Assembly: GCF_038443385.1 (NCBI RefSeq) | Contig: NZ_CP151726.1 | Coordinates: forward strand, 3,472,001 to 3,536,000 | DNA: 64,000 bases | From: Stieleria varia | GTDB taxonomy: Bacteria; Planctomycetota; Planctomycetia; Pirellulales; Pirellulaceae | Direction: 5' to 3' | Shown here: positions 2,966 to 48,518 of the stretch, piece by piece | Layout of the letters: the number at the start of each line of letters is the position of its first letter | Position numbering within the stretch: the stretch's first letter is position 1 | Translations under genes and position numbers: made by a program | The notes under the pieces: generated by a model | Seen by the model: only the letters and a program-made list of their open reading frames with translations | What the model was told of the DNA's origin: nothing | The model's database searches: none

Positions 2966-4273
2966 ATGTTCCATCAACGAATTTCAACCGATCTGGCCGC
3001 CGAGATTTGGTCCACGGTAAAACGGTCAGGATGTCTGGCCGAAGACGTGAAATCATTCGTTGTGCATGATCTGGGGCGGATGCGCGATCGGCTTCAGAAT
3101 CTGCAATCCGTGTTTCCACGGCAATCGCGGCACACTCTGGCGATCAAAGCGAATCCGCTTGTCGAAATCTTACGCGTCGCCGTTGGGTGTGGCGTGGGAT
3201 TGGAAGCCGCAAGTATCGAAGAAGTTGAGTTGGCGGTGGCGGCCGGATGTCCCGCCGAGCAGATCATTTTTGATTCACCGGCCAAAACACGCGATGAAAT
3301 CCAGCATTGCTTGAAGTTGGGCGTCCATTTGAATGTCGACAATTTCGATGAGCTGGAACGAATCGGATCGCTTTACCAAACCGTGGCGTCTGCCTCGACG
3401 GTCGGCTTGCGAATCAATCCCGAAGTCGGCGTGGGAACGATCGCGATCACCAGCGTGGGTGGAACGGGATCAAAATTCGGTGTCTCGGTTTCGAAAGACC
3501 ATGATCGAATTCTGGATGCGTTTGTCAAATACGATTGGCTTGTCGGTTTACACGCTCACGTCGGATCGCAAGGGTGTGCGTTGGATTTGTTGTGCCGCTC
3601 CGCCGCGCGGCTTCAGCAATTGCGACGCGAAATCGTAGAGCATACGGGACGCCGTATCCCTCTGGTCAACATCGGAGGTGGGCTGCCCGCGGCGTATGAT
3701 GACGCCATCGAACCCCCGTCGCCGAGTCTGTACGCGGAGCAACTCGCGATACATGCGCCTGACTTGATGGGCGACGAGGTAACGTTAATGACGGAGTTCG
3801 GGCGAGCGGTGCAAGCCGGATGTGGTGTGGCGTTCAGCCGTGTCGAGTATGTTCGCAGACAAAGCCAACGCGTGGTGGGCGACTTAACGGATAGCGATCA
3901 CAGCATGGCAGTGATTCATTTGGGTGCCGATATGTTTCTGCGTCCGGTGTATCGGCCTGACGATTGGAAACACGAGTACGCTTTGTTGGACGCATCGGGT
4001 CTGCTGAAAACACAAGACTCGCGACAAACGACGATCGCCGGTCCGCTTTGTTTTGCGGGCGACATTTTGACTCGCGAAGCCTTGATGCCAGAACCTCGAG
4101 TGGGCGATTGGATCGTGATCCGTGATTGCGGAGCCTACACGTTGAGCATGTGGTCAAGACACTGCAGTCGTGGATTGCCTCCGGTCGTCGGGTACGACGC
4201 GAGCAACCAGTCGGTGTCGCTCTTGCACCGCGGTGAAACCCCTGAGGATGTTGTGCGGTTTTGGAGCCGTTGA
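2966..4273 (+). CDS. PLP-dependent decarboxylase, fold type III (diaminopimelate/ornithine decarboxylase family)
   Basis: 435 residues, the usual length for LysA-like enzymes. HTLAIKANP near residue 55 holds the PLP Lys, VNIGGGLP is the phosphate-binding glycine loop, TEFGRAVQAG replaces the common EPGR motif, and IRDCGAYTLSMWS near the C-terminus supplies the catalytic Cys and the Tyr reaching the partner subunit. These enzymes decarboxylate D- or L-amino-acid centres (diaminopimelate, ornithine, arginine, carboxynorspermidine, or siderophore intermediates). The altered EFGR motif and the gene context argue against a plain lysine-biosynthesis lysA. ATG start, 10 bases after the previous stop; third and last gene of the cassette. 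Confidence 0.8.
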   Translation: MFHQRISTDLAAEIWSTVKRSGCLAEDVKSFVVHDLGRMRDRLQNLQSVFPRQSRHTLAIKANPLVEILRVAVGCGVGLEAASIEEVELAVAAGCPAEQIIFDSPAKTRDEIQHCLKLGVHLNVDNFDELERIGSLYQTVASASTVGLRINPEVGVGTIAITSVGGTGSKFGVSVSKDHDRILDAFVKYDWLVGLHAHVGSQGCALDLLCRSAARLQQLRREIVEHTGRRIPLVNIGGGLPAAYDDAIEPPSPSLYAEQLAIHAPDLMGDEVTLMTEFGRAVQAGCGVAFSRVEYVRRQSQRVVGDLTDSDHSMAVIHLGADMFLRPVYRPDDWKHEYALLDASGLLKTQDSRQTTIAGPLCFAGDILTREALMPEPRVGDWIVIRDCGAYTLSMWSRHCSRGLPPVVGYDASNQSVSLLHRGETPEDVVRFWSR

Positions 4274-4500
4274 TGGGGAGTTTGGTCACTCAATAGTCGC
4301 TCGACGTTCCACGTCGATAGCGTACGAGACCGTTTGGATGCCCATCGTCAGTCGCGTTTCCGCCAGACTGATCAGGCAGACGTTGTAGCCGGTCCGTCGA
4401 TTCACCACCGGCACAACCGAGCTGTTGATATAATGAGCCGTCAGGCGATAGCGTTCCGCTTAGAAAGTTGATCGCACAGCCATTTTTCTCGTCTTTACCT

Positions 4501-4563
4501 GCACGACGCGCAAGCGAGTGAATTGTCTTTTTGTCCTGCTATTCACTCGCTTGCGCGTCGTGC
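4501..4563. repeat. Perfect 23-bp inverted repeat (REP-like hairpin)
   Basis: The left arm 4501-4523 and right arm 4541-4563 are exact reverse complements separated by 17 bases. No T-tract follows, so this is more likely a REP-like palindrome than a rho-independent terminator, although it lies 228 bases after the cassette and could still block 3' exonucleases. Confidence 0.85.
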
Positions 4564-4635
4564 TGGTATTTTGCTTGAAATTCAACGTGAAACCATGCGT
4601 TCTAGGCGGGACGCTCTCTATCGCGCTGCGGCTGA

Positions 4636-4694
4636 TGAATAATCCGGGCTAGCCGCGGGCCTACCGCACTGCCCGGTGCCTTACGGCCCGCGGC
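4636..4694. repeat. Palindrome preceded by the dispersed motif TGAATAATCCGGGCTA
   Basis: The motif at 4636-4651 is the reverse complement of TAGCCCGGATTATTCA, which recurs near 11048, 17276, 53408 and 61610. It runs into an inverted repeat (AGCCGCGGGCC against GGCCCGCGGCT) closing near 4694. Confidence 0.7.
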
Positions 4695-4893
4695 TCACTT
4701 TTGTGTTCCCAATTTCGACTCAATGGACCGCCTGCAAGGGCGGACGGAGTCTGATGGGAATGTTCTGTGAAACTCACTGCACCACAAACTCGTCCCTGTC
4801 GCCAATGCACCGATTGGAATGCTTCGGATACAATGTCGACTCCGTGTCACCCAATCTCGCCCCAATGACCTTCCTTTCCCCGTAGTTGGCATC

Positions 4894-6075
4894 ATGTGCA
4901 AAACACTCCTGTCTCTGTCAGTTACGATCGCCGTGTACGGCGTCTGCTGTTTGCCATTTCCGGCTCAGGCCATCGACCCGTCGGCTTATTCCTGGCGACC
5001 GGAGACGATCGACCAAATCGAGATCGGCTACGGCGTTCAACTCGCTGACGTCGACGGCGACGGCAAGACGGATATCGTCTTGGCTGACAAGAGCACCATT
5101 CAGTGGTATCAGAGCCCGTCCTGGACGAAACACATCATCGCCAAGGATCTGACCGAGCGTGACAACGTCTGTGTTACCGCTCGCGACATTGACGGAGACG
5201 GTAAGTGTGAGATCGCCGTGGGTGGACAATGGAACTTTCGCGAGAGCGTCAAAGACGGCGCGGTTTTTTACTTGGACGCACCCGAAGACCGTACCCAGAT
5301 GTGGAAACCGATCAAACTACATCACGAACCCAGCACGCACCGCATGCACTGGGTGAAAGGTGTCGGGGACCAATATCACTTGGTCGTCAAACCTCTGCGA
5401 GGAAAAGGCAGCGTGGAGGGTGTCGGTCCAGGACTGAAAGTACTTGCCTACCAACGTCCTGAGAAACATGACGCTCAGTGGCCGTATCATGTGGTCAGCG
5501 ATTCACTCCACCTTTCACATAATTTTCACCCGGTCAATTGGGATGATGATGCCGAAGAAGAGTTGATCATCGCGGCCAAGGAAGGTGTTTGGCATTTTGA
5601 CCCGAAGGGTGAGCAGTGGTCGTCCACTCAGTTGACCGATGCGTGGGCGGGCGAAGTGCGTGACGGACGGTTGCCCGGCGGAAAGCGTTTCATCGCGACG
5701 GTGGAGCCCATGCACGGGTCGGCTTCGGCGGTCTATGTGCAATCCGATTCACCTGACAGCCAGTGGACGCGAGCGAAGGTCTTGGACGAGGCTTTGAAGG
5801 ACGGACACGCGCTTGCCTGTGCTGATTTCCTGGGCAACGGCAGCGACCAAGTCGTCGTCGGTTGGCGAGCGATGAACGATCCAGGAGTGCCGGGCATCAA
5901 GCTTTTCACTCCGCTCGATGCCGAGGGATCTCAGTGGCATGAGCTGCCGCTTTCACAAGGGACCGTCGCGGTGGAAGACATCAAGGTCGGCGACCTCAAC
6001 GGTGACGGGAAAGTAGACATCGTTGCCGCGGCGCGACAGACCAAAAACCTGGTGATCTTTTGGAACGAGAGGTAG
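4894..6075 (+). CDS. Secreted FG-GAP / VCBS repeat protein
   Basis: 393 residues from ATG 4894, chosen because it starts directly with a signal peptide (a short basic start, then hydrophobic LLSLSVTIAVYGVCC, and a cleavage-like AQA at about residue 23). An in-frame ATG 75 bases upstream would bury the signal. At least three calcium-binding FG-GAP type motifs are visible: DVDGDGKTDIV, DIDGDGKCEIA and DLNGDGKVDIV, at the start, middle and very end. The protein is probably a periplasmic or extracellular beta-propeller. Such proteins are abundant in planctomycetes; ligand and role are unknown. It stands alone between repeat-rich spacers. Confidence 0.8.
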   Translation: MCKTLLSLSVTIAVYGVCCLPFPAQAIDPSAYSWRPETIDQIEIGYGVQLADVDGDGKTDIVLADKSTIQWYQSPSWTKHIIAKDLTERDNVCVTARDIDGDGKCEIAVGGQWNFRESVKDGAVFYLDAPEDRTQMWKPIKLHHEPSTHRMHWVKGVGDQYHLVVKPLRGKGSVEGVGPGLKVLAYQRPEKHDAQWPYHVVSDSLHLSHNFHPVNWDDDAEEELIIAAKEGVWHFDPKGEQWSSTQLTDAWAGEVRDGRLPGGKRFIATVEPMHGSASAVYVQSDSPDSQWTRAKVLDEALKDGHALACADFLGNGSDQVVVGWRAMNDPGVPGIKLFTPLDAEGSQWHELPLSQGTVAVEDIKVGDLNGDGKVDIVAAARQTKNLVIFWNER

Positions 6076-39465: not shown

Positions 39466-41997
39466 ATGAACATGATTGCTGAAAGCTCACCTTCGAACTC
39501 TCTCGCTCGTCATCCGGCGTCCAATCGCGAGCGGAGTGCGATCGTCGAAGACACCGGGATCAACTTGCTGGCCGCCTTGTGGCGATACCGCTGGGCAGTG
39601 TTGTTGCCCACGCTGATTCTGGCAGCGGTGGGATTCGGTTTCTATGTCACCATGCAGGAGACGTATCGCAGCACCACACGCTTGATGGTCGAATCAGACC
39701 GACCCGCGTTGATGAACTCCCAGTCAGGAGAACTCATCGGTGGTGTTCCCGACATCGAGATCTTGCAGGCGGAGCTTTTCAGCGATGATCTGGCAAAGAT
39801 GGCCTTTGCAAATACTAACTTGCAACCGTTCCACCGACTCTATGGTGAGACTCCCGGAGAGCAACTGGAACAGTTCATTTCAGACGCACAAGATCAGTTG
39901 ATCCTGGAACCGGAAGTCACGGACCTTCTTTCGGCACAGTCTTTGGTGACCCTGCTGCACTTCGACAGCAGTGACAAAGAACACTGTGTCGCTGCTGTTA
40001 ACGCATACAGCGAAGCGTTGCAGAACTACTACAACGAGAAACACAAAAGCTCTCGAAACGAAGTGATCCGCTACATCGATGTGATGATCAAGCAGTTGAG
40101 TCCCAAGATCACCGATCTGGAACGCCGGTTGACGGAGTTTAAACTCGATGCGCCGCTGGACTGGGATGACGAAGGCAAGGCGATCAATCCACACCGGATG
40201 CAGCAGCAGTATCTGATGAAACGACGCAACGAGTTGCTGGAGTCGTTGAGTGAAAACAATGCGATCTTGACGTCGATGACGGACATCGCGGAGCAGACCA
40301 AGGACCCTCGCGTTGCCTTGAACGTTTTTGCACAGGTCTTGGGCGTCAGAGTCTTCGCCCCGACTCAGGCGAGTCAGGTCAACCAAGCACTCGATGGCGA
40401 CGAAGAACTCGCGTCAATCGATCTGGAAAAGAAACTCGTTCCTCTGTTGATCGAACGTGACAAGAATGCCAGGGAATACGGGATCAATCACCCCTCGGTC
40501 AAAATTTATGATTCGCAGATCGCAACGATGAAAAGCGAGTTGTCTCGCTTGGTGCGCAGCGAAGCCGCCCGGATCACCCAGTTGCGTGAAGAGTCCTCGG
40601 CAGCGTTTGACGATCCGATCCAGCAGGCCAGTGAAACAGTCATCGCGTTGTTGACATCAACGCGCTCGGATGTCAAATCGATCACTCAGCAGATCGCTGA
40701 TCTCGAGGATCAATTGGCGACGGAGAAACGAGAAGCGGTGAAGCTGGCGCGTTATGAGCAAGAACACGAACAGATGGTGCGCGAGTTGGATCAAAATCGC
40801 ACGTTGATGCAGGAACTGAAGGAAACGATCGCGCGTGCCTCGTTGACCGAAGAAGAGAGCGTGACGCGAGTGATCGAGTTGACCAAACCGACGCCGGCAT
40901 ACATCGTCGGTCCCGTGCTGCTGCAAACGGTGGGTGCCGGGACTCTGTTGGGGCTGCTGCTGGGTAGCGGACTGGCCTTGTTGCTGGAAAAGAACGCCAA
41001 TACGTTCCGAGATCAGGAAGAAATCACAGCCATGCTTGGCGTACCGGTCCTTTCGCACATCCCGTTCTTTCGTGGAAAATCGCGCAAGACAAAGAAAGGA
41101 GAGTTGGACCCCTATCAGGACTTGAGCAACGACATGATCGTGGTTCATCAACCCTCGTCCATGGTTTCCGAAGCGATTCGTTCTTTCCGAACCGCCGTGT
41201 TCTTTGACGCCGGGAATGAAAGCCGCGGGCGCGTGATCCAGATCACCAGCCCCTTGCCAGGTGACGGAAAAAGCACGATCGCCAGCAACTTGGCTTGCTC
41301 GATCGCTCAGAGCGGAAAACGTGTGCTGGCGATCGACTGCGATCTTAGGCGTCCGCAGTTGACAGACAATTTTAATAGTGCCGACAAATTGGGGCTCACC
41401 AATGTGCTCAACGGCGAGTGCGATCCGGCGGACGCCGCCCATCCCACGCCGCTGCCCAAGTTGTACGTGATGCCGTGCGGTCCTATTCCGAACAATCCCG
41501 CAGAGGCTCTTTCGTTGCCGGTGATGAACGAACTGCTCGATTTGCTTCGTGAGCAGTATGACTACATCATCTTGGACACGCCTCCGCTGTTGGTCGTGAC
41601 CGACCCGAGTATCGCTGCCAGCATGGCGGACACGGTGGTGCTGACCCTGAGGGTTCGTCGCCGGAGCAAGCCCAATGCCAAGGAAGCAGTCAATATTCTG
41701 TCCGCCGTTGGCGCGAATATTCTCGGGGTCGTCATCAACAATTCGGACGAAACTGGGCAGAGCGACGGTTACCGTGGATACGGCTATTATCGACACGGCA
41801 AATACGCCAGCCGCTATTACTCTCGCGGCTCAGGTCCTGTTGCCAACGGACGCACCAGCGTTGCCGTTTCGGACGGCCCCTCCCTGCGTCGTTCGACCGT
41901 AGTGAGCGGAAAAGCGGTGTCGAGCAAGCCGATCGGAAAGGCGGCACCTGCTAGTTTAGAAGTTGCGGGATCGAGTGGCGATTCCGCAGACAACTGA
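39466..41997 (+). CDS. Wzc-like polysaccharide co-polymerase / tyrosine autokinase
   Basis: 843 residues. A Wzz-type N-terminus has one membrane segment (WAVLLPTLILAAVGFGFYV, about 43-61), a periplasmic coiled-coil region, and a second segment near 480-505 (VGAGTLLGLLLGSGLALLL). The cytosolic BY-kinase domain follows: SPLPGDGKSTIASNLA (Walker A, about 595), VLAIDCDLRRPQL (Walker A'), and YIILDTPPLLVVTDP (Walker B). A Tyr cluster near the C-terminus (GYRGYGYYRHGKYASRYY) fits autophosphorylation. The protein controls chain length and export of extracellular polysaccharide. It is the first gene of the run with the exosortase (45 bases downstream) and TPR genes. Confidence 0.92.
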   Translation: MNMIAESSPSNSLARHPASNRERSAIVEDTGINLLAALWRYRWAVLLPTLILAAVGFGFYVTMQETYRSTTRLMVESDRPALMNSQSGELIGGVPDIEILQAELFSDDLAKMAFANTNLQPFHRLYGETPGEQLEQFISDAQDQLILEPEVTDLLSAQSLVTLLHFDSSDKEHCVAAVNAYSEALQNYYNEKHKSSRNEVIRYIDVMIKQLSPKITDLERRLTEFKLDAPLDWDDEGKAINPHRMQQQYLMKRRNELLESLSENNAILTSMTDIAEQTKDPRVALNVFAQVLGVRVFAPTQASQVNQALDGDEELASIDLEKKLVPLLIERDKNAREYGINHPSVKIYDSQIATMKSELSRLVRSEAARITQLREESSAAFDDPIQQASETVIALLTSTRSDVKSITQQIADLEDQLATEKREAVKLARYEQEHEQMVRELDQNRTLMQELKETIARASLTEEESVTRVIELTKPTPAYIVGPVLLQTVGAGTLLGLLLGSGLALLLEKNANTFRDQEEITAMLGVPVLSHIPFFRGKSRKTKKGELDPYQDLSNDMIVVHQPSSMVSEAIRSFRTAVFFDAGNESRGRVIQITSPLPGDGKSTIASNLACSIAQSGKRVLAIDCDLRRPQLTDNFNSADKLGLTNVLNGECDPADAAHPTPLPKLYVMPCGPIPNNPAEALSLPVMNELLDLLREQYDYIILDTPPLLVVTDPSIAASMADTVVLTLRVRRRSKPNAKEAVNILSAVGANILGVVINNSDETGQSDGYRGYGYYRHGKYASRYYSRGSGPVANGRTSVAVSDGPSLRRSTVVSGKAVSSKPIGKAAPASLEVAGSSGDSADN

Positions 41998-42042
41998 TTT
42001 TTACGCGACTGAGTCAAGTTCCACCAACCCATCGATTCGACC

Positions 42043-43836
42043 ATGGCTACGATTCAGCCGACCATTGAAACGGCTGCCGGCGAAAAAGATTCCGCATCCA
42101 AACGCTGGATGTATTTTTGGGCATTGCTGTTTCTTGCCTCGGTTCCGTTGTTGATTCCGTACATGATCGACATGTGGGCACATGATCGATATCGGTACTT
42201 TCCGTTTGCACTGCTGGCAACCGGTTGGCTGGTTTACAACCGCTTTGACGGTCGATTCTATCCGCCACGATCATGGTTCAGTTGGGGTGTCATTTCGATC
42301 GCTTGTGTGCTGATCGCGGGCTCGGCAGTGATTCAGTTTCCCTGGTTTGCTGCCGTAGGGTTTGTCCTGATCGCGTTGTGTTGTCTGCACGCGATGAGGG
42401 GGCACGAGGACACGTCGCTGCTGGTGTGTGGTTTGCCTCTGCTGACGTTCATTCAGTTGCCCCGTGCCGACGTCTTGCTGACTCAGAAACTGCAGGACAT
42501 CACCACTTGGCTGTCCAGCGTCATGCTCGATGCGTCTGCCGTACCACACACCGTCAGCAATCGCGTGATCCAGCTTGCCGATCGCGAGTTGTTTGTTGCC
42601 GAGGCATGCAGCGGGATCCAGTCTGTGTTCACGCTCGGATTTCTCGCGTGTGTATTGCTCGCGTTCCGCCGACGTCCTGTCTGGCTGTTTCCCGTTTACC
42701 TGTTGATTGCTTGTTTGCTGGCGGTACTGGCCAACGTGATCCGCGTCACGGTCGTTGCTTTGGGGATCGCTTGGTTCCAGATCGACATGACAGCTGGTTG
42801 GTCGCACGACATGATCGGCTATCTAGCGTTGATCATCGCGGGGTTGTTTTTGCTGTCCTTTGACCATCTCTTGGTCACGCTATTGCACATTGTTCAGCCC
42901 GAGAGTGAGTTCAATCCGCTGATCTCTGCCTGGAACTTTTTTGCTGTTCGTACGGATGTCGAGGTGGTCGCAGACCCACAGATCAATCGAGACGCGATCC
43001 AGGATGCGACGCGACGCGATCAGGCGTCTGCGGCATTTCTATGGGCCAACCGTTTGTCCGGCAGTCCGGTGGCAAAGATCGGGTTTGCCTGCTTGATTGG
43101 ACTCATTGCGATCGGCTCGGCCGTTCAGGTGCTTCGTTCCAGCAAGCCCAAGGACATTTTGTTCAGCAATGAGTCGTTGGTCTTTGACCCTGATCCCAAG
43201 ATGCTGGACCCATCGTTGCATGCACTCCGGGTCGTCAGTCACACGCCCAATCGCGGCTACGAAGATCCGCGATTGGGAGCCAACTCGGATGTTTGGGAGT
43301 GTGAAACGGGGGATGTCAAAGCACAGTTCGTGCTCAGCCAGCCTCACAAAGGATGGCATGAACTGTGCGATTGCTATGAACGCTTGGACTGGATGTTGAT
43401 CAATCGAAACATCAAGTCTGCTGGCGAAATGGAATCCTTGGGCGTCTCGTCAAAGAGTCCCCAGGCGATAGAGGTGCCCTACGTGGTTGCGAGGTTCAAA
43501 AAGGATCCGGGGCAGTTCGGGTACCTGTTGTTTGCCGGAATCGGTAGCGACGGTGCTCTGATCCCGGCTCCCTCTAGTCTCTCCGCGTTTACCCATCGCA
43601 TTTGGAATCGGATCGACGGATCGGGCGTTTGGAATCAGGACGAAGTGATCATGCTGCAGATGTGGGTCACCTCGCCTCGCAAGCTGACGGCCAAGAATTT
43701 GCAAGAGTTAGAAGACGACTTTGTCGCCGCCCGAGCGACGTTCGCCGAAGCGATCGCGGCAAACGCGAGCCACTATTCCGGCGATGAAGGCCAAGTGGCC
43801 GCCAGGACTTTGAATCATCTTGGAGAGACCCTCTGA
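42043..43836 (+). CDS. Exosortase with C-terminal EpsI-like domain (probably XrtU type)
   Basis: 597 residues. About eight membrane segments fill residues 22-285. The catalytic triad of the exosortase family is present in order: EACSGIQS (Cys 189), NVIRV (Arg 234) and HDMIGY (His 255). This is a membrane transpeptidase-like enzyme that processes C-terminal sorting signals in bacteria making extracellular polysaccharide. After about residue 340 (one more membrane segment, IGFACLIGLIAIGSAV) a soluble 230-residue domain resembles EpsI (PHKGWHELCDCYERLDW). Planctomycete exosortases of this shape have been called XrtU; I use that name tentatively. No classical PEP-CTERM protein is visible in the window. 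The stop overlaps the next start (ATGA). Confidence 0.88.
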   Translation: MATIQPTIETAAGEKDSASKRWMYFWALLFLASVPLLIPYMIDMWAHDRYRYFPFALLATGWLVYNRFDGRFYPPRSWFSWGVISIACVLIAGSAVIQFPWFAAVGFVLIALCCLHAMRGHEDTSLLVCGLPLLTFIQLPRADVLLTQKLQDITTWLSSVMLDASAVPHTVSNRVIQLADRELFVAEACSGIQSVFTLGFLACVLLAFRRRPVWLFPVYLLIACLLAVLANVIRVTVVALGIAWFQIDMTAGWSHDMIGYLALIIAGLFLLSFDHLLVTLLHIVQPESEFNPLISAWNFFAVRTDVEVVADPQINRDAIQDATRRDQASAAFLWANRLSGSPVAKIGFACLIGLIAIGSAVQVLRSSKPKDILFSNESLVFDPDPKMLDPSLHALRVVSHTPNRGYEDPRLGANSDVWECETGDVKAQFVLSQPHKGWHELCDCYERLDWMLINRNIKSAGEMESLGVSSKSPQAIEVPYVVARFKKDPGQFGYLLFAGIGSDGALIPAPSSLSAFTHRIWNRIDGSGVWNQDEVIMLQMWVTSPRKLTAKNLQELEDDFVAARATFAEAIAANASHYSGDEGQVAARTLNHLGETL

Positions 43837-45344
43837 TGGAATTCGTCAATCCGTTGCAGTGGGCCAGATGGCTTGTTGAGTTTTTTCGCGCATGGCTCTT
43901 GGCTGTCCCGTGGCGTGATGCGCCCAAAGCCATCCCTGCGATCTTGCTGATGCTCGTCATGGCCATCGTGGGCACCATTGCGATGACCGGTGGTGCCGGG
44001 TGGCGAAATCGGCTGCTGAACAATCAGCTCGCCGTCGCTTTTGACATGGACGACTATTCGACCGCGGAAGTGGTCATCCGTAGGCAACTCGACGCCGATC
44101 CCAACAACGGGGACTTGCTGTATCGGCTGGCAGTTGTCCGAGATGCTCAGTCGCATGTGGAGGAAGCGAAGGAGATCTTGCGATATTTGGCGTTAGAACG
44201 TCGGCATCTCGACGCGGCCAAATGGCTCCTTGAGAAAGACTTCATCGGCAAACAGTGGGGCAGCTTGACGTCCGAGCGACGGGAAGAGTTTGGGCAGATC
44301 CTGGAGTTGATCACTCAACAAGAACGTGAAAATCTCAAAGTGTTGCGGTTGTACGCGGAGTACTTGATCGCCAGCGAAAAATTCTCGTCCGCGATTCCGG
44401 TGCTAAAAAAACTTTCTCAGACAGACCCCATGCGCGCCTTGCAGGCTGCGGCGCTCTCTCGAAAACTTGGTGACTTTGACGGCGCGGATGTTCTTGCCGA
44501 GCGTGCGTTGGAAGATGTCAACAAGATGTCGAACGACGATCCGACCAACTCCACGCTGGCTCTGGCGGTTGCGCAGAATCAGCTCTTTCTGAAACGCTAC
44601 GGTGACGCAGTTCGTACGTTGGATTCGGCAATCAAAGTGGCAAAGACTCCGGCGGAAAAGAATCTGCTCAGCCAAGCCATGGGCGACGCCATCGTGGCTT
44701 GGATCGCGTTCATCGAAGAGGCACCCAACGCAACGGTCCAAGAACGCGTGCGAATCTTGAAGATGTTGCGAGCCGCGTTGAACTACGCGCCGAACAACCC
44801 ACGCGTCGTCACGTTGGTTGCTGACCAAGTTCTGGGGACGCTCAACGACGACGAACCTTCGATCGCCGAGATCCGCGACGGACTGCTGGCCTCGCTGGTG
44901 GACGGAAAATCGCCAGGTATCGCGCACTTCATCAAAGGCACCTCCGCATTGATGAGCGATGACATTGCCAACGCGATGCTGCATCTGGATTTGGCAAGAG
45001 AGATGATGCCGCAAAGCAGCGCGGTGCTGAACAACTTGGCCGTCGCCATGGCTTTGCAAAAGGATCCCGACTTAGATAAGGCGCTCAAGCTCTCCAATGC
45101 GGCCATCGAACAGACCCCTCAACCCACGCCGCACTTTTACGAAACACGCGGACAAATTCTTTACCGCATGGGTAGCTTCATGGCGGCGATTCCCGACTTG
45201 GAACGCACCCTGGCGGCACCGTCGCTGGCAACCAAGGCGCACGAAATGCTGGCGGTGTGTTATGATCGAGTCGGAGACAAGGTGCTGGCCAATCAACACC
45301 GCGCTGCTGCCAAGCAAACGCCTCAAGAATCTGACCCTGAGTGA
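43836..45344 (+). CDS. Membrane-anchored TPR protein of the exosortase locus
   Basis: 502 residues. One membrane segment (AIPAILLMLVMAIVGTIAMTGG, about 32-53) is followed by a periplasmic or cytosolic array of tetratricopeptide-like helices, for example NNGDLLYRLAVVRDAQSHVEEAKEIL-type and MLHLDLAREMMPQSSAVLNNLAVAMALQ-type repeats (named by pattern only). TPR proteins of this shape (PrsT/EpsT-like) commonly accompany exosortase loci and probably scaffold polysaccharide export. The ATG shares its A with the exosortase stop, so translation is coupled. The AmmeMemoRadiSam gene follows 39 bases later. Confidence 0.8.
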   Translation: MEFVNPLQWARWLVEFFRAWLLAVPWRDAPKAIPAILLMLVMAIVGTIAMTGGAGWRNRLLNNQLAVAFDMDDYSTAEVVIRRQLDADPNNGDLLYRLAVVRDAQSHVEEAKEILRYLALERRHLDAAKWLLEKDFIGKQWGSLTSERREEFGQILELITQQERENLKVLRLYAEYLIASEKFSSAIPVLKKLSQTDPMRALQAAALSRKLGDFDGADVLAERALEDVNKMSNDDPTNSTLALAVAQNQLFLKRYGDAVRTLDSAIKVAKTPAEKNLLSQAMGDAIVAWIAFIEEAPNATVQERVRILKMLRAALNYAPNNPRVVTLVADQVLGTLNDDEPSIAEIRDGLLASLVDGKSPGIAHFIKGTSALMSDDIANAMLHLDLAREMMPQSSAVLNNLAVAMALQKDPDLDKALKLSNAAIEQTPQPTPHFYETRGQILYRMGSFMAAIPDLERTLAAPSLATKAHEMLAVCYDRVGDKVLANQHRAAAKQTPQESDPE

Positions 45345-45383: not shown

Positions 45384-48300
45384 ATGACGGCCGCTATCAC
45401 GCCCACCAAATGGTACGAAATCGAATCAGACGGTCGGATCGTCTGTCGCCTTTGCCCTCGGGAGTGTCATCTCAAGGACGGTGATCGCGGGTTCTGTTTC
45501 GTTCGACAGAATGTCGATGGAAAGATGGTGCTGGATACCTACGGAAAAAGCACCGGTTTTTGCATCGATCCGATCGAGAAGAAACCACTCAATCATTTTT
45601 TGCCCGGTACCCCCGTGCTGAGTTTCGGCACCGCGGGATGCAATCTCGGTTGCAAGTTTTGCCAAAACTGGGACATCTCCAAGAGCCGTGAAGTCGCCAG
45701 GCTGAGTGACCACGCGATGCCGGACGAGATCGCCCAGACGGCCGCCGATACCGGATGCCGAAGTGTTGCGTTCACGTACAACGATCCGATCATCTGGGCC
45801 GAGTACGCGATCGACACCGCAACTGCGTGCCGAGATCGCGGGATCCATTCGGTCGCAGTCACCGCAGGGTACCTTTCCCAGCAGGCGAGACCTGAGTTCT
45901 TTGCCGCCATGGACGCGGCCAACATCGATCTCAAGGCCTTCAGTGAGTCGTTCTACTACCGCGTGACCGGATCGCACTTGCAGCCAGTCTTGGACACCAT
46001 CGCATACGCGTGCAATGAAACGGATTGCTGGGTCGAGCTGACAAATCTAATCATCCCCAACAACAACGACGATCCGGATGAGTGGCGACGCATGTGCGAT
46101 TGGTTGGTTTCCACGATCGGCACGGATGTACCGATCCACTTCACCGCTTTTCACCCCGACTTTCGCTTACAGAATCAACCTCGAACGTCTCACGAGACAT
46201 TGATCGCCGCTTATGACTTGGCACGTCAGTCGGGGCTGCGATATGTCTACGTCGGCAATGTCCATGACGTGGAGCGACAAAGTACTTATTGTCATGGGTG
46301 CGGCGCTTTGCTGATCCAACGAGACTGGCATCAACTGGGACACTACGCGATGCAAGGCAACCGATGCCAAGCATGCCAATGCGTGATCCCCGGTCGCTTT
46401 GAGGCAACGCCCGGCACCTGGGGGCAGCGTCGCCAGAGAGTCAAGATCCAATCGCGCACACTACCCGTCGTTCCGAATGAAGTTCGCATGAGCCAAACAA
46501 ATCCTACCGACATCATCCACTGGTCAGACGCAGAGCAAGACGCTATCCACGCCGCCGCGTGTCACTTCGTCGCCACGTCGGTCCTCGGCGAAGACTCCGA
46601 TCCGCCTCTGTCCGTCCTGCCAGAGCTTGCCTCTCGCATGATTCATGGCGTGTATGTGACGCTCAAGCGAGGTGAAACGCTGCGTGGTTGCTGCGGAATG
46701 CTGGGCGCAGAAATGTCGCTTGGCGATGCGCTGGCAGACTCTGCGGCCCGAACCACACGTGACCCCAGGATGTCGGCCATCTCCGCTTCCGAACTGCCGT
46801 ACCTGACGCTTTCGGTTTCCATCCTCGGGCCTCCCCGGCCCATCTCTGCTCGTGGTGACGACCGTGTCGACCAAGTCAAGATTGGACAACACGGCTTGAG
46901 GATCCGTATCGGGCAAAACTCAGGCCTGCTGCTGCCGGTCGTTGCGATCGAACAGGGTTGGAATGCCAAGCAGTTTCTGGACGCCGTGTGTCGAAAGGCA
47001 GGTTTGCCGGCGGGGACTTGGCGAAGCGATCAAGCGGAGTTGATGCTGTTTGACGGAATCTATTTCGGAGGACCGTTTCAATTGCCTGAGACGCTTGGCC
47101 AGTCCGCAAGAGACAAGTTGCAATCAGCGGAACGCCAAGCCGTCTCGCCAGCCGCCCTTTCCACAGTGACGCGTTGGATCTCGAATGCTGTCGCGCAAGC
47201 GTCCAAGAGCCCGGATGCGTTAGGATCACCCGCCACAGCACTCGCCGACCGTGTCGATGAAGTGAACGTGAATGGCTACATGTTGCGGATCCGACAAGCC
47301 GAGTCATCCAGCAGTTGGCTGCAGCTGAGTCTTCGTGACACGATTGCCATGCAAGCATCTCTCCAGCAAACACTCCGCGGCGCAAGATCATCTGCAAACG
47401 ATTCGACGTCTCCCGAGGAGTCTGCGGAGGTCGCTCTGGCTGTGTTGACCGGTCCCATCCATCACGGCGATGCGAAAACGGCTGACTTGCGCGGGATCGA
47501 TCCGCAGTGTCGAGCCATCGTCGCGACCGATGGACGACGATGGTCCGTTAGGTTCGACCGGGAATCGCCCCCGGAGCAGACTTTGGCAAAGGTGCTGGCT
47601 GCCGAGCGATTTGATGCAGGAACCACCCAGCTCTACTCGCTTCATTGTGACAGCAACGTCCCCGCACTGGGGACCTCGCTGGGAATCGCTGCGATGTCCC
47701 AGTTCACGGTCCGCCCACCAGCGGTCGCCGATCGTTTCTACAGTGGCGCCGACGCGCAGCGGGACGCCGAAGTCGATGCGTTGATCAGTGGGCTGCCTCC
47801 GGTTGCCAAGCGAACGGTCAATGCAGCGATGGTGCCACACGCGGGATTGCGGTTCAGTGGTGAGATCGCCGCTGATACCTGGCGACGGATTGAATTGCCG
47901 CGAGACGTCTTGATCATCAGCCCCAAGCACACCGGTGATGGGGTCGACTGGGCCGTGGCACCGTACACTCGATGGCAGCTTTCGGGCGACGCGGCGTTGG
48001 AGGGGAACGAGGAAATGGCAACCAGTTTGGCTGCCTGTCATGAGGGATTGGAGTTGGACTCTGCCGCTCACCGCGGCGAGCACGGGATCGAAATCCAATT
48101 GCCGATCCTGTATCGATTGGCGCCACAAACACGCGTTACCGCGATCGCGATGCGAAGTGCCACGTGGGAGCAACTGCAAGATCTCGCGGTGTCGCTAGCG
48201 GCTTGGATGAAGTCGCAGGCTTCGCCGCCGTTGCTGGTCATCAGCAGCGACATGAATCACTACGCGGACGAGATCGAGAATCGAACTCGTGATCGCATGG

Positions 48301-48518
48301 CCCTCGACGCGTTGCGTACGGGAGATGCCAAAGCGTTGTTGGATGTGTGCGAAGCAGAAAACATCAGCATGTGCGGGCAAGTTCCAGCGGCCCTGGTGCT
48401 GTTGACGCTGCGGCATCTGGGAATCACACCGGCGTACGATGAAATCGCCTACGCAACCAGCGCTCAATACGGCGGCGACCCGCAACGCGTCGTCGGCTAC
48501 GCGGGTGTCTTGTTGTAG
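45384..48518 (+). CDS. Single-chain AmmeMemoRadiSam protein (radical SAM + AMMECR1 + Memo)
   Basis: 1044 residues from ATG 45384. Residues 1-345 are the radical SAM member: an N-terminal Cys set (21, 24, 28, 38), CNLGCKFC (86-93) for the 4Fe-4S cluster, NIDLKAFSESFY, and CHGCG plus CQACQC (303-333) for a second metal site. Residues 375-570 are AMMECR1, with the hallmark LRGCCG (433-438), ARDP-like RTTRDPR and LPYLTLSVSIL. Residues 590-770 are an extra domain that looks like a decayed AMMECR1. Residues 777-1044 are Memo, keeping VPHAG (His 819), SPKHT (His 849), SSDMNHY (His 959) and MCGQ (Cys 997). The three parts are normally separate genes. Function is unknown; the association is established, the three-way fusion is what I see here. 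Confidence 0.92.
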   Translation: MTAAITPTKWYEIESDGRIVCRLCPRECHLKDGDRGFCFVRQNVDGKMVLDTYGKSTGFCIDPIEKKPLNHFLPGTPVLSFGTAGCNLGCKFCQNWDISKSREVARLSDHAMPDEIAQTAADTGCRSVAFTYNDPIIWAEYAIDTATACRDRGIHSVAVTAGYLSQQARPEFFAAMDAANIDLKAFSESFYYRVTGSHLQPVLDTIAYACNETDCWVELTNLIIPNNNDDPDEWRRMCDWLVSTIGTDVPIHFTAFHPDFRLQNQPRTSHETLIAAYDLARQSGLRYVYVGNVHDVERQSTYCHGCGALLIQRDWHQLGHYAMQGNRCQACQCVIPGRFEATPGTWGQRRQRVKIQSRTLPVVPNEVRMSQTNPTDIIHWSDAEQDAIHAAACHFVATSVLGEDSDPPLSVLPELASRMIHGVYVTLKRGETLRGCCGMLGAEMSLGDALADSAARTTRDPRMSAISASELPYLTLSVSILGPPRPISARGDDRVDQVKIGQHGLRIRIGQNSGLLLPVVAIEQGWNAKQFLDAVCRKAGLPAGTWRSDQAELMLFDGIYFGGPFQLPETLGQSARDKLQSAERQAVSPAALSTVTRWISNAVAQASKSPDALGSPATALADRVDEVNVNGYMLRIRQAESSSSWLQLSLRDTIAMQASLQQTLRGARSSANDSTSPEESAEVALAVLTGPIHHGDAKTADLRGIDPQCRAIVATDGRRWSVRFDRESPPEQTLAKVLAAERFDAGTTQLYSLHCDSNVPALGTSLGIAAMSQFTVRPPAVADRFYSGADAQRDAEVDALISGLPPVAKRTVNAAMVPHAGLRFSGEIAADTWRRIELPRDVLIISPKHTGDGVDWAVAPYTRWQLSGDAALEGNEEMATSLAACHEGLELDSAAHRGEHGIEIQLPILYRLAPQTRVTAIAMRSATWEQLQDLAVSLAAWMKSQASPPLLVISSDMNHYADEIENRTRDRMALDALRTGDAKALLDVCEAENISMCGQVPAALVLLTLRHLGITPAYDEIAYATSAQYGGDPQRVVGYAGVLL

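What the first reader, a model, noticed from the sequence alone, without database searches (positions are those of the whole stretch)
45384..48518. All three AmmeMemoRadiSam components in one polypeptide
The sequence shows one uninterrupted 1044-codon frame with a radical SAM enzyme (CNLGCKFC), AMMECR1 (LRGCCG) and Memo (His 819, His 849, His 959, Cys 997). It is established that these three families co-occur as separate genes in many prokaryotes, with unknown chemistry. A covalent fusion in 1:1:1 ratio is strong evidence that they form one complex and act on one substrate, and it offers a single protein to study.
Basis: partly seen in the sequence, partly recalled or inferred. Interest (0 to 1): 0.85.

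Follow-up and report, generated by a model that had tools for sequence, protein, structure and literature searches.

The report
Fused four-domain AmmeMemoRadiSam protein
One planctomycete gene joins three proteins of unknown chemistry that are usually made separately, two of them relatives of human disease-linked proteins, plus a hidden worn-down copy of one of them, so the unsolved system can be studied as a single protein.

Summary
In detail: window 45384-48518 is one intact 1044-codon gene with radical SAM (TIGR04337), AMMECR1 (TIGR04335) and Memo (TIGR04336), all above curated cut-offs. The picture was incomplete. (1) A fourth domain: residues 563-776, matched by no Pfam or NCBIfam family, are a degenerate second AMMECR1, so the make-up is 1:2:1. 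(2) The fusion is common: of 110 class genomes holding this radical SAM, 70 carry it in a frame of 938 aa or more, and 67 of these 70 hold all four domains unbroken. (3) It is not obligate: some relatives are split, and a congener keeps only the radical SAM part. (4) In one family the same AMMECR1-pseudoAMMECR1-Memo module follows a radical SAM domain of another lineage (AU p 3e-71; module kinship). Catalytic residues of all three are invariant in 80 distinct fusions. Most likely a self-contained multistep redox enzyme; substrate and chemistry are unknown. Domain packing was not resolved (pTM 0.52). New variant of a known kind.

The parts
45384..48518 (+). Whole gene: rSAM - AMMECR1 - degenerate AMMECR1 - Memo, 1044 aa
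45405..46448 (+). AmmeMemoRadiSam radical SAM domain (TIGR04337), residues 8-355
   Evidence: 575 bits; PFL-activating-enzyme folds among the matches
45444..45497 (+). N-terminal four-cysteine motif C21-C24-C28-C38, possible extra metal or Fe-S site (inference)
   Evidence: invariant in 80 of 80 fusions; seen in both rSAM lineages
45639..45662 (+). CNLGCKFC, the CxxxCxxC motif for the SAM-cleaving [4Fe-4S] cluster (residues 86-93)
   Evidence: sequence; the three Cys invariant in 80 of 80
46290..46376 (+). C303-C306...C328-C331, C-terminal CxxC pair, possible zinc or Fe-S site (inference)
   Evidence: invariant in 80 of 80
46638..47060 (+). AMMECR1 domain (TIGR04335 / PF01871), residues 419-559
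   Evidence: Foldseek 1vaj E 1.4e-16
46683..46697 (+). AMMECR1 signature R434-x-C436-x-G438 (within LRGCCG)
   Evidence: R, C and G invariant in 80 of 80; G435 varies (S 33, G 32, A 15)
47070..47711 (+). Cryptic second AMMECR1 domain (degenerate, no RxCxG), residues 563-776; in no Pfam or NCBIfam family
   Evidence: (no family)
47712..48512 (+). Memo domain (TIGR04336 / PF01875), residues 777-1043
   Evidence: Foldseek MEMO1 7l5c E 2.5e-17
47838..47840 (+). His819, inferred metal ligand (taken as human MEMO1 H49)
   Evidence: 80 of 80; ligand role of H49 in PMC11081632; correspondence inferred from motif order
47928..47930 (+). His849, inferred metal ligand (taken as human MEMO1 H81)
   Evidence: 80 of 80; correspondence inferred
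48372..48374 (+). Cys997, inferred metal ligand (taken as human MEMO1 C244)
   Evidence: 79 of 79 rows with a letter; correspondence inferred

Best explanation
A single-chain version of the AmmeMemoRadiSam system. SHOWN: one gene encodes rSAM, AMMECR1, a degenerate AMMECR1 and Memo, with the key residues of the three active-looking domains conserved together. INFERRED: it is a self-contained multistep redox enzyme. The rSAM domain, whose nearest characterised families are glycyl-radical-enzyme activases, cleaves SAM and takes a hydrogen atom from a substrate; the active AMMECR1 (R-x-C-x-G) with its inactive twin forms a two-lobed unit that holds or passes on the substrate; the Memo domain, with an extradiol-dioxygenase-like His/His/Cys iron site, does a second redox step. 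Tethering raises local concentration and passes a reactive intermediate along. The substrate is unknown.
For: Families and folds of all three. Joint retention of key residues in 80 distinct fusions: a merely structural or decaying partner should lose its site, as the second AMMECR1 did. The genome has no other AMMECR1 or Memo match. Of 110 class genomes with this rSAM, 70 carry the long frame and 67 of those hold all four domains unbroken. No neighbour gene is widely shared (46 loci, frames of 90 aa or more; the most shared family is in 8), so the protein looks self-sufficient. Two rSAM lineages stand before the same kind of A-x-B module, as expected if rSAM output feeds that module. MEMO1 binds iron through H49, H81 and C244 in an extradiol-dioxygenase-like site (PMC11081632, passages).
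Against: No activity is known for the parts; the MEMO1 authors detected no dioxygenase activity with the substrates they tried. The parts occur apart: among control genomes Haloferax rings for AMMECR1 but not Memo, Thermus for Memo but not AMMECR1; G638 keeps an rSAM with its cysteines and no AMMECR1 in the genome. Relative placement of the domains is not predicted with confidence (pTM 0.52), and stretches of the rSAM N-terminus are themselves below pLDDT 50, so channelling is untested.
Confidence: 0.4

Rival explanations
1. Stoichiometry device: the three proteins act in one pathway but on separate steps or in separate complexes; fusion only fixes co-expression and dosage, with no channelling.
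For: Repeated separation: R | A-x-B or R | A-B in 12 of 151 loci classified (a few loci are the same gene fetched twice), parts on different contigs in G498, G576 and G684, rSAM without AMMECR1 in G638. A low-confidence linker, residues 357-376, between rSAM and AMMECR1.
Against: The fused frame is the commoner state in the class (70 of 110), and a second rSAM lineage is joined in the same order.
Confidence: 0.3
2. Activase in cis: the rSAM domain does not act on a free substrate but modifies the AMMECR1 domain itself, at or near the invariant R434-x-C436-x-G438 loop, much as PFL activase puts a radical on a glycine loop; the modified AMMECR1 is then the catalyst and Memo supplies or removes an oxidant.
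For: Among characterised families the rSAM scores best with glycyl-radical-enzyme activases (PFLA 1.9e-14, then YjjW, PFLE_PFLC, HPDL activase; fold hits 3cb8, 3c8f, 3can). R, C and G of the AMMECR1 loop are invariant in 80 of 80 fusions. AMMECR1 directly follows rSAM in the chain.
Against: Spacing differs from the glycyl-radical loop (RVxGY, recalled), and the glycine before the cysteine is not conserved (S 33, G 32, A 15). Humans have AMMECR1 and MEMO1 apparently without this rSAM (recalled), and Haloferax rings for AMMECR1 but not for the rSAM.
Confidence: 0.15
3. Peptide- or protein-modifying system: the second AMMECR1-like domain is a recognition module for a peptide substrate, comparable in role to a RiPP recognition element.
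For: An rSAM related to the Memo-AMMECR1 systems occurs in peptide-processing systems (PMC7159879, passage); predicted fusions of recognition elements with Memo-like proteins are reported (PMC12710340, passage).
Against: No widely shared neighbour beside the fusions (only frames of 90 aa or more were compared, so short precursor peptides would be missed).
Confidence: 0.1
4. Artefact: assembly join or missed frameshift.
For: None found.
Against: 19 of 80 named loci and 67 class genomes have the same uninterrupted frame; GC3 shows no break.
Confidence: 0.01

Closest known systems
AmmeMemoRadiSam system (NCBIfam TIGR04335, TIGR04336, TIGR04337) as separate genes
   Same: All three components match above curated cut-offs
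   Different: One polypeptide in the order R-A-x-B, with an extra degenerate AMMECR1 domain
Memo-AMMECR1 (B-A) two-domain fusions beside a separate rSAM
   Same: Same families; 11 of 151 loci classified
   Different: Opposite domain order (B-A against A-x-B), no second AMMECR1 between them, rSAM not fused
AMMECR1-Memo (A-B) proteins, mostly of planctomycete family f2
   Same: Same order; AMMECR1+Memo fall in the same 39-row set as the fusions (100/100); 7 loci
   Different: No middle domain and rSAM separate. They mix with A-x-B proteins in the tree, which suggests loss of the middle domain, not proven
Human MEMO1 (3bcz, 7kq8, 7l5c)
   Same: Memo fold; H49, H81 and C244 ligands taken to correspond to H819, H849 and C997
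   Different: Stand-alone; 18-19% identity in the structural matches
Pyruvate formate-lyase activating enzyme (3c8f, 3cb8)
   Same: rSAM fold and CxxxCxxC
   Different: Extra N- and C-terminal cysteine motifs; scores far below activase cut-offs; a glycyl radical partner was not searched for in the genome

Membership tests
AmmeMemoRadiSam rSAM (TIGR04337) | Score above curated cut-off 220 bits over the full model | tested here: met
   574.8 bits, model 1-349
AmmeMemoRadiSam rSAM (TIGR04337) | CxxxCxxC cluster motif | tested here: met
   C86, C90, C93
AmmeMemoRadiSam protein A / AMMECR1 (TIGR04335, PF01871) | Score above cut-off | tested here: met
   112.6 (cut-off 99) and 125.5 (cut-off 25) bits; the match starts at model position 33 and 28
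AmmeMemoRadiSam protein A / AMMECR1 (TIGR04335, PF01871) | RGC-type signature loop (label recalled) | tested here: met
   LRGCCG 433-438
AmmeMemoRadiSam protein B / Memo (TIGR04336, PF01875) | Score above cut-off and His/His/Cys metal ligands | tested here: met
   204.7 bits (cut-off 26); H819, H849, C997 present; that they are the ligands is inferred from MEMO1
AmmeMemoRadiSam system | Shared reaction of the three components | not testable with these tools
   No activity known
AMMECR1 (for the middle domain, residues 563-776) | Sequence match to PF01871 or TIGR04335 | tested here: not met
   No match there at E up to 1 (Pfam) or 0.1 (NCBIfam)
AMMECR1 (for the middle domain, residues 563-776) | Profile-profile relation above controls | tested here: met
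   P 2e-7 (probability 94) to the AMMECR1 domains of the fusions; P 0.0011 (probability 20) to stand-alone AMMECR1s; 20 shuffled and 2 reversed comparisons reach at best P 0.032; unrelated rSAM profile 0.019, Memo profile 0.19
AMMECR1 (for the middle domain, residues 563-776) | AMMECR1 fold | tested here: met
   Model mean pLDDT 83.9; the only PDB chains at E <= 0.001 are AMMECR1 proteins 1vaj and 1zq7 A and B, E 2.5e-5 to 1.3e-4, but TM only 0.42-0.50 and rmsd about 7
AMMECR1 (for the middle domain, residues 563-776) | RxCxG signature | tested here: not met
   Not seen in the middle-domain columns of the alignments
Glycyl-radical-enzyme activases | Score above a curated activase cut-off | tested here: not met
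   53.6 bits against 231.75 for PFLA; the other activase models listed are also far below their cut-offs

The most novel reading that the evidence does not exclude
AMMECR1 is the in-cis target of its own radical SAM domain: the R-x-C-x-G loop is turned into a peptidyl radical or modified-residue cofactor, the degenerate AMMECR1 twin acts as the clamp that replaces a partner subunit, and the Memo iron site completes the reaction. That would make AMMECR1 a new class of rSAM-activated protein and give human AMMECR1 and MEMO1 a common ancestral chemistry.
Probability: 0.07. Interest if true: 0.9.

Novelty: new variant of a known kind. Interest (0 to 1): 0.55.

Why it matters
AMMECR1 and MEMO1 are widely conserved, linked to human disease, and without known chemistry; their prokaryotic partnership with a radical SAM enzyme is a standing puzzle. 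A natural single-chain version fixes stoichiometry and order, gives one construct to purify, and adds two handles: a hidden pseudo-AMMECR1 domain, suggesting that AMMECR1 may work as a pair, and natural joining of two radical SAM lineages to one kind of module, suggesting which part is replaceable. It makes the question experimentally simpler but does not answer it.

Tried and rejected
Assembly join or frameshift: rejected.

Selenocysteine in related radical SAM genes: many matches are flagged with a stop inside. In the five loci looked at (L196, L198-L201) the stop follows the end of the matched domain and is TGA, TAA or TAG: ordinary termination there. The others were not looked at.

Gene context as a clue to substrate: 45 of 46 loci compared fell in the fusion cluster (L117 did not, because of the ORF-picking rule). 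The next most shared family is in 8 loci; of the eight five-locus families, seven are in the same five loci (a Gimesia-like group), and the eighth, a sugar-nucleotide-dehydratase-like family (named by eye, not scanned), is in five including the window. No clear substrate clue.

A conserved AMHG(T/S)-like motif in the middle domain looked general in a first alignment; a loose pattern found it in 42 of 80, and not in the window protein. Not used.

Aerobic link: 26 of 26 fusion genomes tested have a COX1 match, but so do 9 of 9 class genomes with an unfused rSAM frame, 14 of 14 class genomes without an rSAM match, G638, and 11 of 20 phylum genomes with the more distant rSAM type. Not specific to the fusion.

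Shared cavity: full-length model pTM 0.52 and no coordinates available; not testable.

Nesting of the f115 module inside the planctomycete fusions: I first took this from quick trees. Tested again, it is likely but not proven. In a careful AMMECR1+Memo tree f115 lies inside (95/86), yet a tree with f115 outside the other 35 rows is not rejected (p 0.29), and for Memo alone the best tree found with f115 outside scored 43 units higher than the quick tree (p 0.906). The AU test also forced split relatives apart from fused ones, so I replaced it by the cleaner one. A further AU test printed in the part of the output that was cut; I did not see it.

Prior description: the paper likeliest to discuss fusions (doi 10.1074/jbc.RA119.007595) is not held; nothing read from it. 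Ten paper searches listed nothing whose title or abstract start describes the three-way fusion; that does not show it is undescribed.
Full report
CHECK OF THE OBSERVATION. The frame 45384-48518 (+) is open for 1044 codons. NCBIfam places the three parts in the three AmmeMemoRadiSam families above their curated cut-offs: TIGR04337 at residues 8-355, 575 bits; TIGR04335 at 419-559, 113 bits; TIGR04336 at 777-1043, 205 bits. Pfam gives Radical_SAM, AMMECR1 and Memo. GC3 stays between 0.61 and 0.75 in nine windows. The genome (one 9.72-Mb contig) has a single Memo match and a single AMMECR1 match, both in this frame.

A FOURTH DOMAIN. The stretch between AMMECR1 and Memo, residues 563-776, matches no family in Pfam (E up to 1) or NCBIfam (E up to 0.1), yet it is conserved: in 79 other distinct fusions the gap between the two domains has a median of 209 residues, and 76 of 79 match its profile above 40 bits (about 20 of them helped to build that profile); two more match at 20-23 bits and one protein lacks it (L208). 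Its profile aligns with the AMMECR1 domains of the same proteins at P 2e-7 (probability 94) and with stand-alone AMMECR1 proteins at P 0.0011 (probability only 20). As controls, 20 column-shuffled and 2 reversed comparisons reach at best P 0.032, and the unrelated rSAM and Memo profiles give 0.019 and 0.19. An AlphaFold2 model from 22 sequences has mean pLDDT 83.9. Foldseek against the PDB returns three chains at E <= 0.001, all AMMECR1 proteins (1vaj; 1zq7 A and B), E 2.5e-5 to 1.3e-4; TM-scores are modest, 0.42-0.50, with rmsd about 7, as for a diverged copy. The R-x-C-x-G signature is not there. So it is a cryptic, probably non-catalytic second AMMECR1, and the make-up is 1 rSAM: 2 AMMECR1 folds: 1 Memo.

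HOW COMMON. In 397 genomes of the window's class, 110 have the rSAM above cut-off; in 70 of these the frame that carries it is 938-1242 aa long (counted by hand from the listing). I opened all 70 with my own domain profiles: 67 hold rSAM, AMMECR1, the middle domain and Memo in one frame (the middle domain weakly, 20-23 bits, in G393 and G630); G574 holds the three without the middle domain; in G727 and G668 part of Memo is cut off (another frame; a stop in the same frame). Two further genomes (G675, G610) have rSAM plus all or part of AMMECR1 in a frame that reached the edge of the piece I fetched. Of 80 loci kept from the named genome collection, 19 are fused in one frame: 17 with planctomycete names, one called only 'bacterium', one Verrucomicrobiia; these 80 are the best of at least 596 matches to this very protein, so they are no random sample. 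Elsewhere: Pseudomonadota, 97 of 349 genomes have the rSAM above cut-off, longest frame 630 aa. Verrucomicrobiota, 124 of 268; the only three-way fusion seen is in G749, the genome chosen because it has one (two other long frames opened, no), and the middle domain is found in 1 of 240, again G749. Acidobacteriota, 124 of 199; none of the eight long frames opened is three-way. The listings were cut at the weak end, so low-scoring cases there were not seen.

OTHER ARRANGEMENTS. Among 151 loci classified by script (a few are one gene fetched twice): 34 R-A-x-B, 5 R | A-x-B, 7 R | A-B, 11 R | B-A, 40 with AMMECR1 or Memo nearby otherwise, 54 with neither nearby (many of these fetched with short flanks). 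The PVC-type rSAMs, f115 apart, form one starred set of 53 rows. For AMMECR1+Memo, 39 A-x-B and A-B proteins, f115 included, stand together against 10 others (100/100). So A-x-B looks old in this group, and fusion with rSAM was lost, or gained, more than once. G638, of the window's own genus, has an rSAM frame with its cysteines, but no AMMECR1 in the sequence that follows (about 1 kb to the contig end) and no AMMECR1 match in the genome; three other congeners have neither. Memo was not searched for in G638.

TWO RADICAL SAM LINEAGES, ONE KIND OF MODULE. Four fusions of one family (f115; L114-L117) have the usual A-x-B module but an rSAM domain unlike the others, close to rSAMs L141 and L142 that have no AMMECR1 or Memo nearby. 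Holding the f115 rSAMs together with the 12 PVC rSAMs of a 40-row tree (rows chosen by me) costs 332 log-likelihood units, AU p 3e-71. Their AMMECR1+Memo part lies on the PVC side with 100/100 support, next to the Gimesia-like fusions (95/86); a place outside the other 35 PVC rows is not rejected (p 0.29; for Memo alone also not, p 0.906). So either the rSAM was swapped, or the module was joined twice; the data do not decide.

WHAT IS CONSERVED. In 80 distinct fusions, the window's included, 11 rSAM cysteines (21, 24, 28, 38, 86, 90, 93, 303, 306, 328, 331), AMMECR1 R434, C436, G438 and W546, and Memo H819 and H849 are invariant; H959 and C997 are present in all 79 rows that have a letter. G435 is not conserved, and C60 is C in 75 of 80.

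STRUCTURE. The full-length model (20 sequences) has mean pLDDT 80.2 but pTM 0.52; parts of the rSAM N-terminus (33-57, 92-107) and the linker 357-376 are below 50. The arrangement of the domains is not determined. Foldseek recognises MEMO1 (7l5c, E 2.5e-17), AMMECR1 (1vaj, 1.4e-16) and PFL activase (3cb8, 4.1e-10) in it.

MECHANISM. Shown: anatomy, conservation, separation, and the two rSAM lineages. From literature: human MEMO1 binds iron through H49, H81 and C244 in a site like that of extradiol dioxygenases, with no dioxygenase activity detected (PMC11081632, passages); AMMECR1 ranks as a marker of anaerobes in a genome survey (3.38 against 50.66, which I read as per cent of aerobes and of anaerobes; PMC13386939, table passage); archaeal AMMECR1 is linked to a gene with PIN and zinc-ribbon domains (PMC6393860, table passage). 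Inferred: rSAM starts by hydrogen abstraction, AMMECR1 with its twin handles the substrate, Memo performs a second redox step. I hold this at 0.4, against a pure stoichiometry device at 0.3.

NOVELTY. The families and their partnership are known. The single-chain form is widespread in public genomes of the class. My searches of an open-access library listed no description of it or of the second AMMECR1 domain (listings and a few passages seen), and the most relevant paper is not held. I file it as a new variant of a known kind.

Noticed in passing
L184:2010-4409, L189:6560-8791, L197:1-3006, L200:7184-9799, L250:1021-3477; a sixth relative in L193: In 6 of 22 loci with separate-gene or otherwise different systems, a large protein of one family lies near the rSAM or Memo-AMMECR1 gene; the four scanned match Pfam Spermine_synth, two of them only just above cut-off. 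A possible clue to the substrate of the separate-gene form.
   Followed up: partly
L196:3066-5369 (+), genome G222: One frame with the reverse order Memo - half AMMECR1 - rSAM (768 aa). Relatives L248 and L249 have Memo-AMMECR1 and rSAM in two overlapping frames, so this may be an in-frame deletion or an assembly fault.
   Followed up: partly
L192:4373-6271 (-), genome G1398: AMMECR1-rSAM two-domain fusion (633 aa) with Memo in an overlapping upstream frame: another way of joining the same parts.
   Followed up: no
window 39466-45344 (+): Directly upstream of the fusion, same strand: a polysaccharide tyrosine autokinase, exosortase U (NF033780, 170 bits) and a TPR protein (best match below its cut-off), ending 39 bases before the ATG. 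The fusion may share their transcript here; only one other of 46 loci has relatives of the exosortase and TPR genes.
   Followed up: partly
L195:2322-3728 and 3629-5464 (-), genome G352: rSAM-AMMECR1 in one frame and middle-domain-Memo in an overlapping other frame: a split at an unusual place, real or a sequence error.
   Followed up: no
L119:4418-5932 (+), genome G576: rSAM frame that ends with about half of the middle domain, while A-x-B lies on another contig (L174): a rearranged remnant.
   Followed up: no
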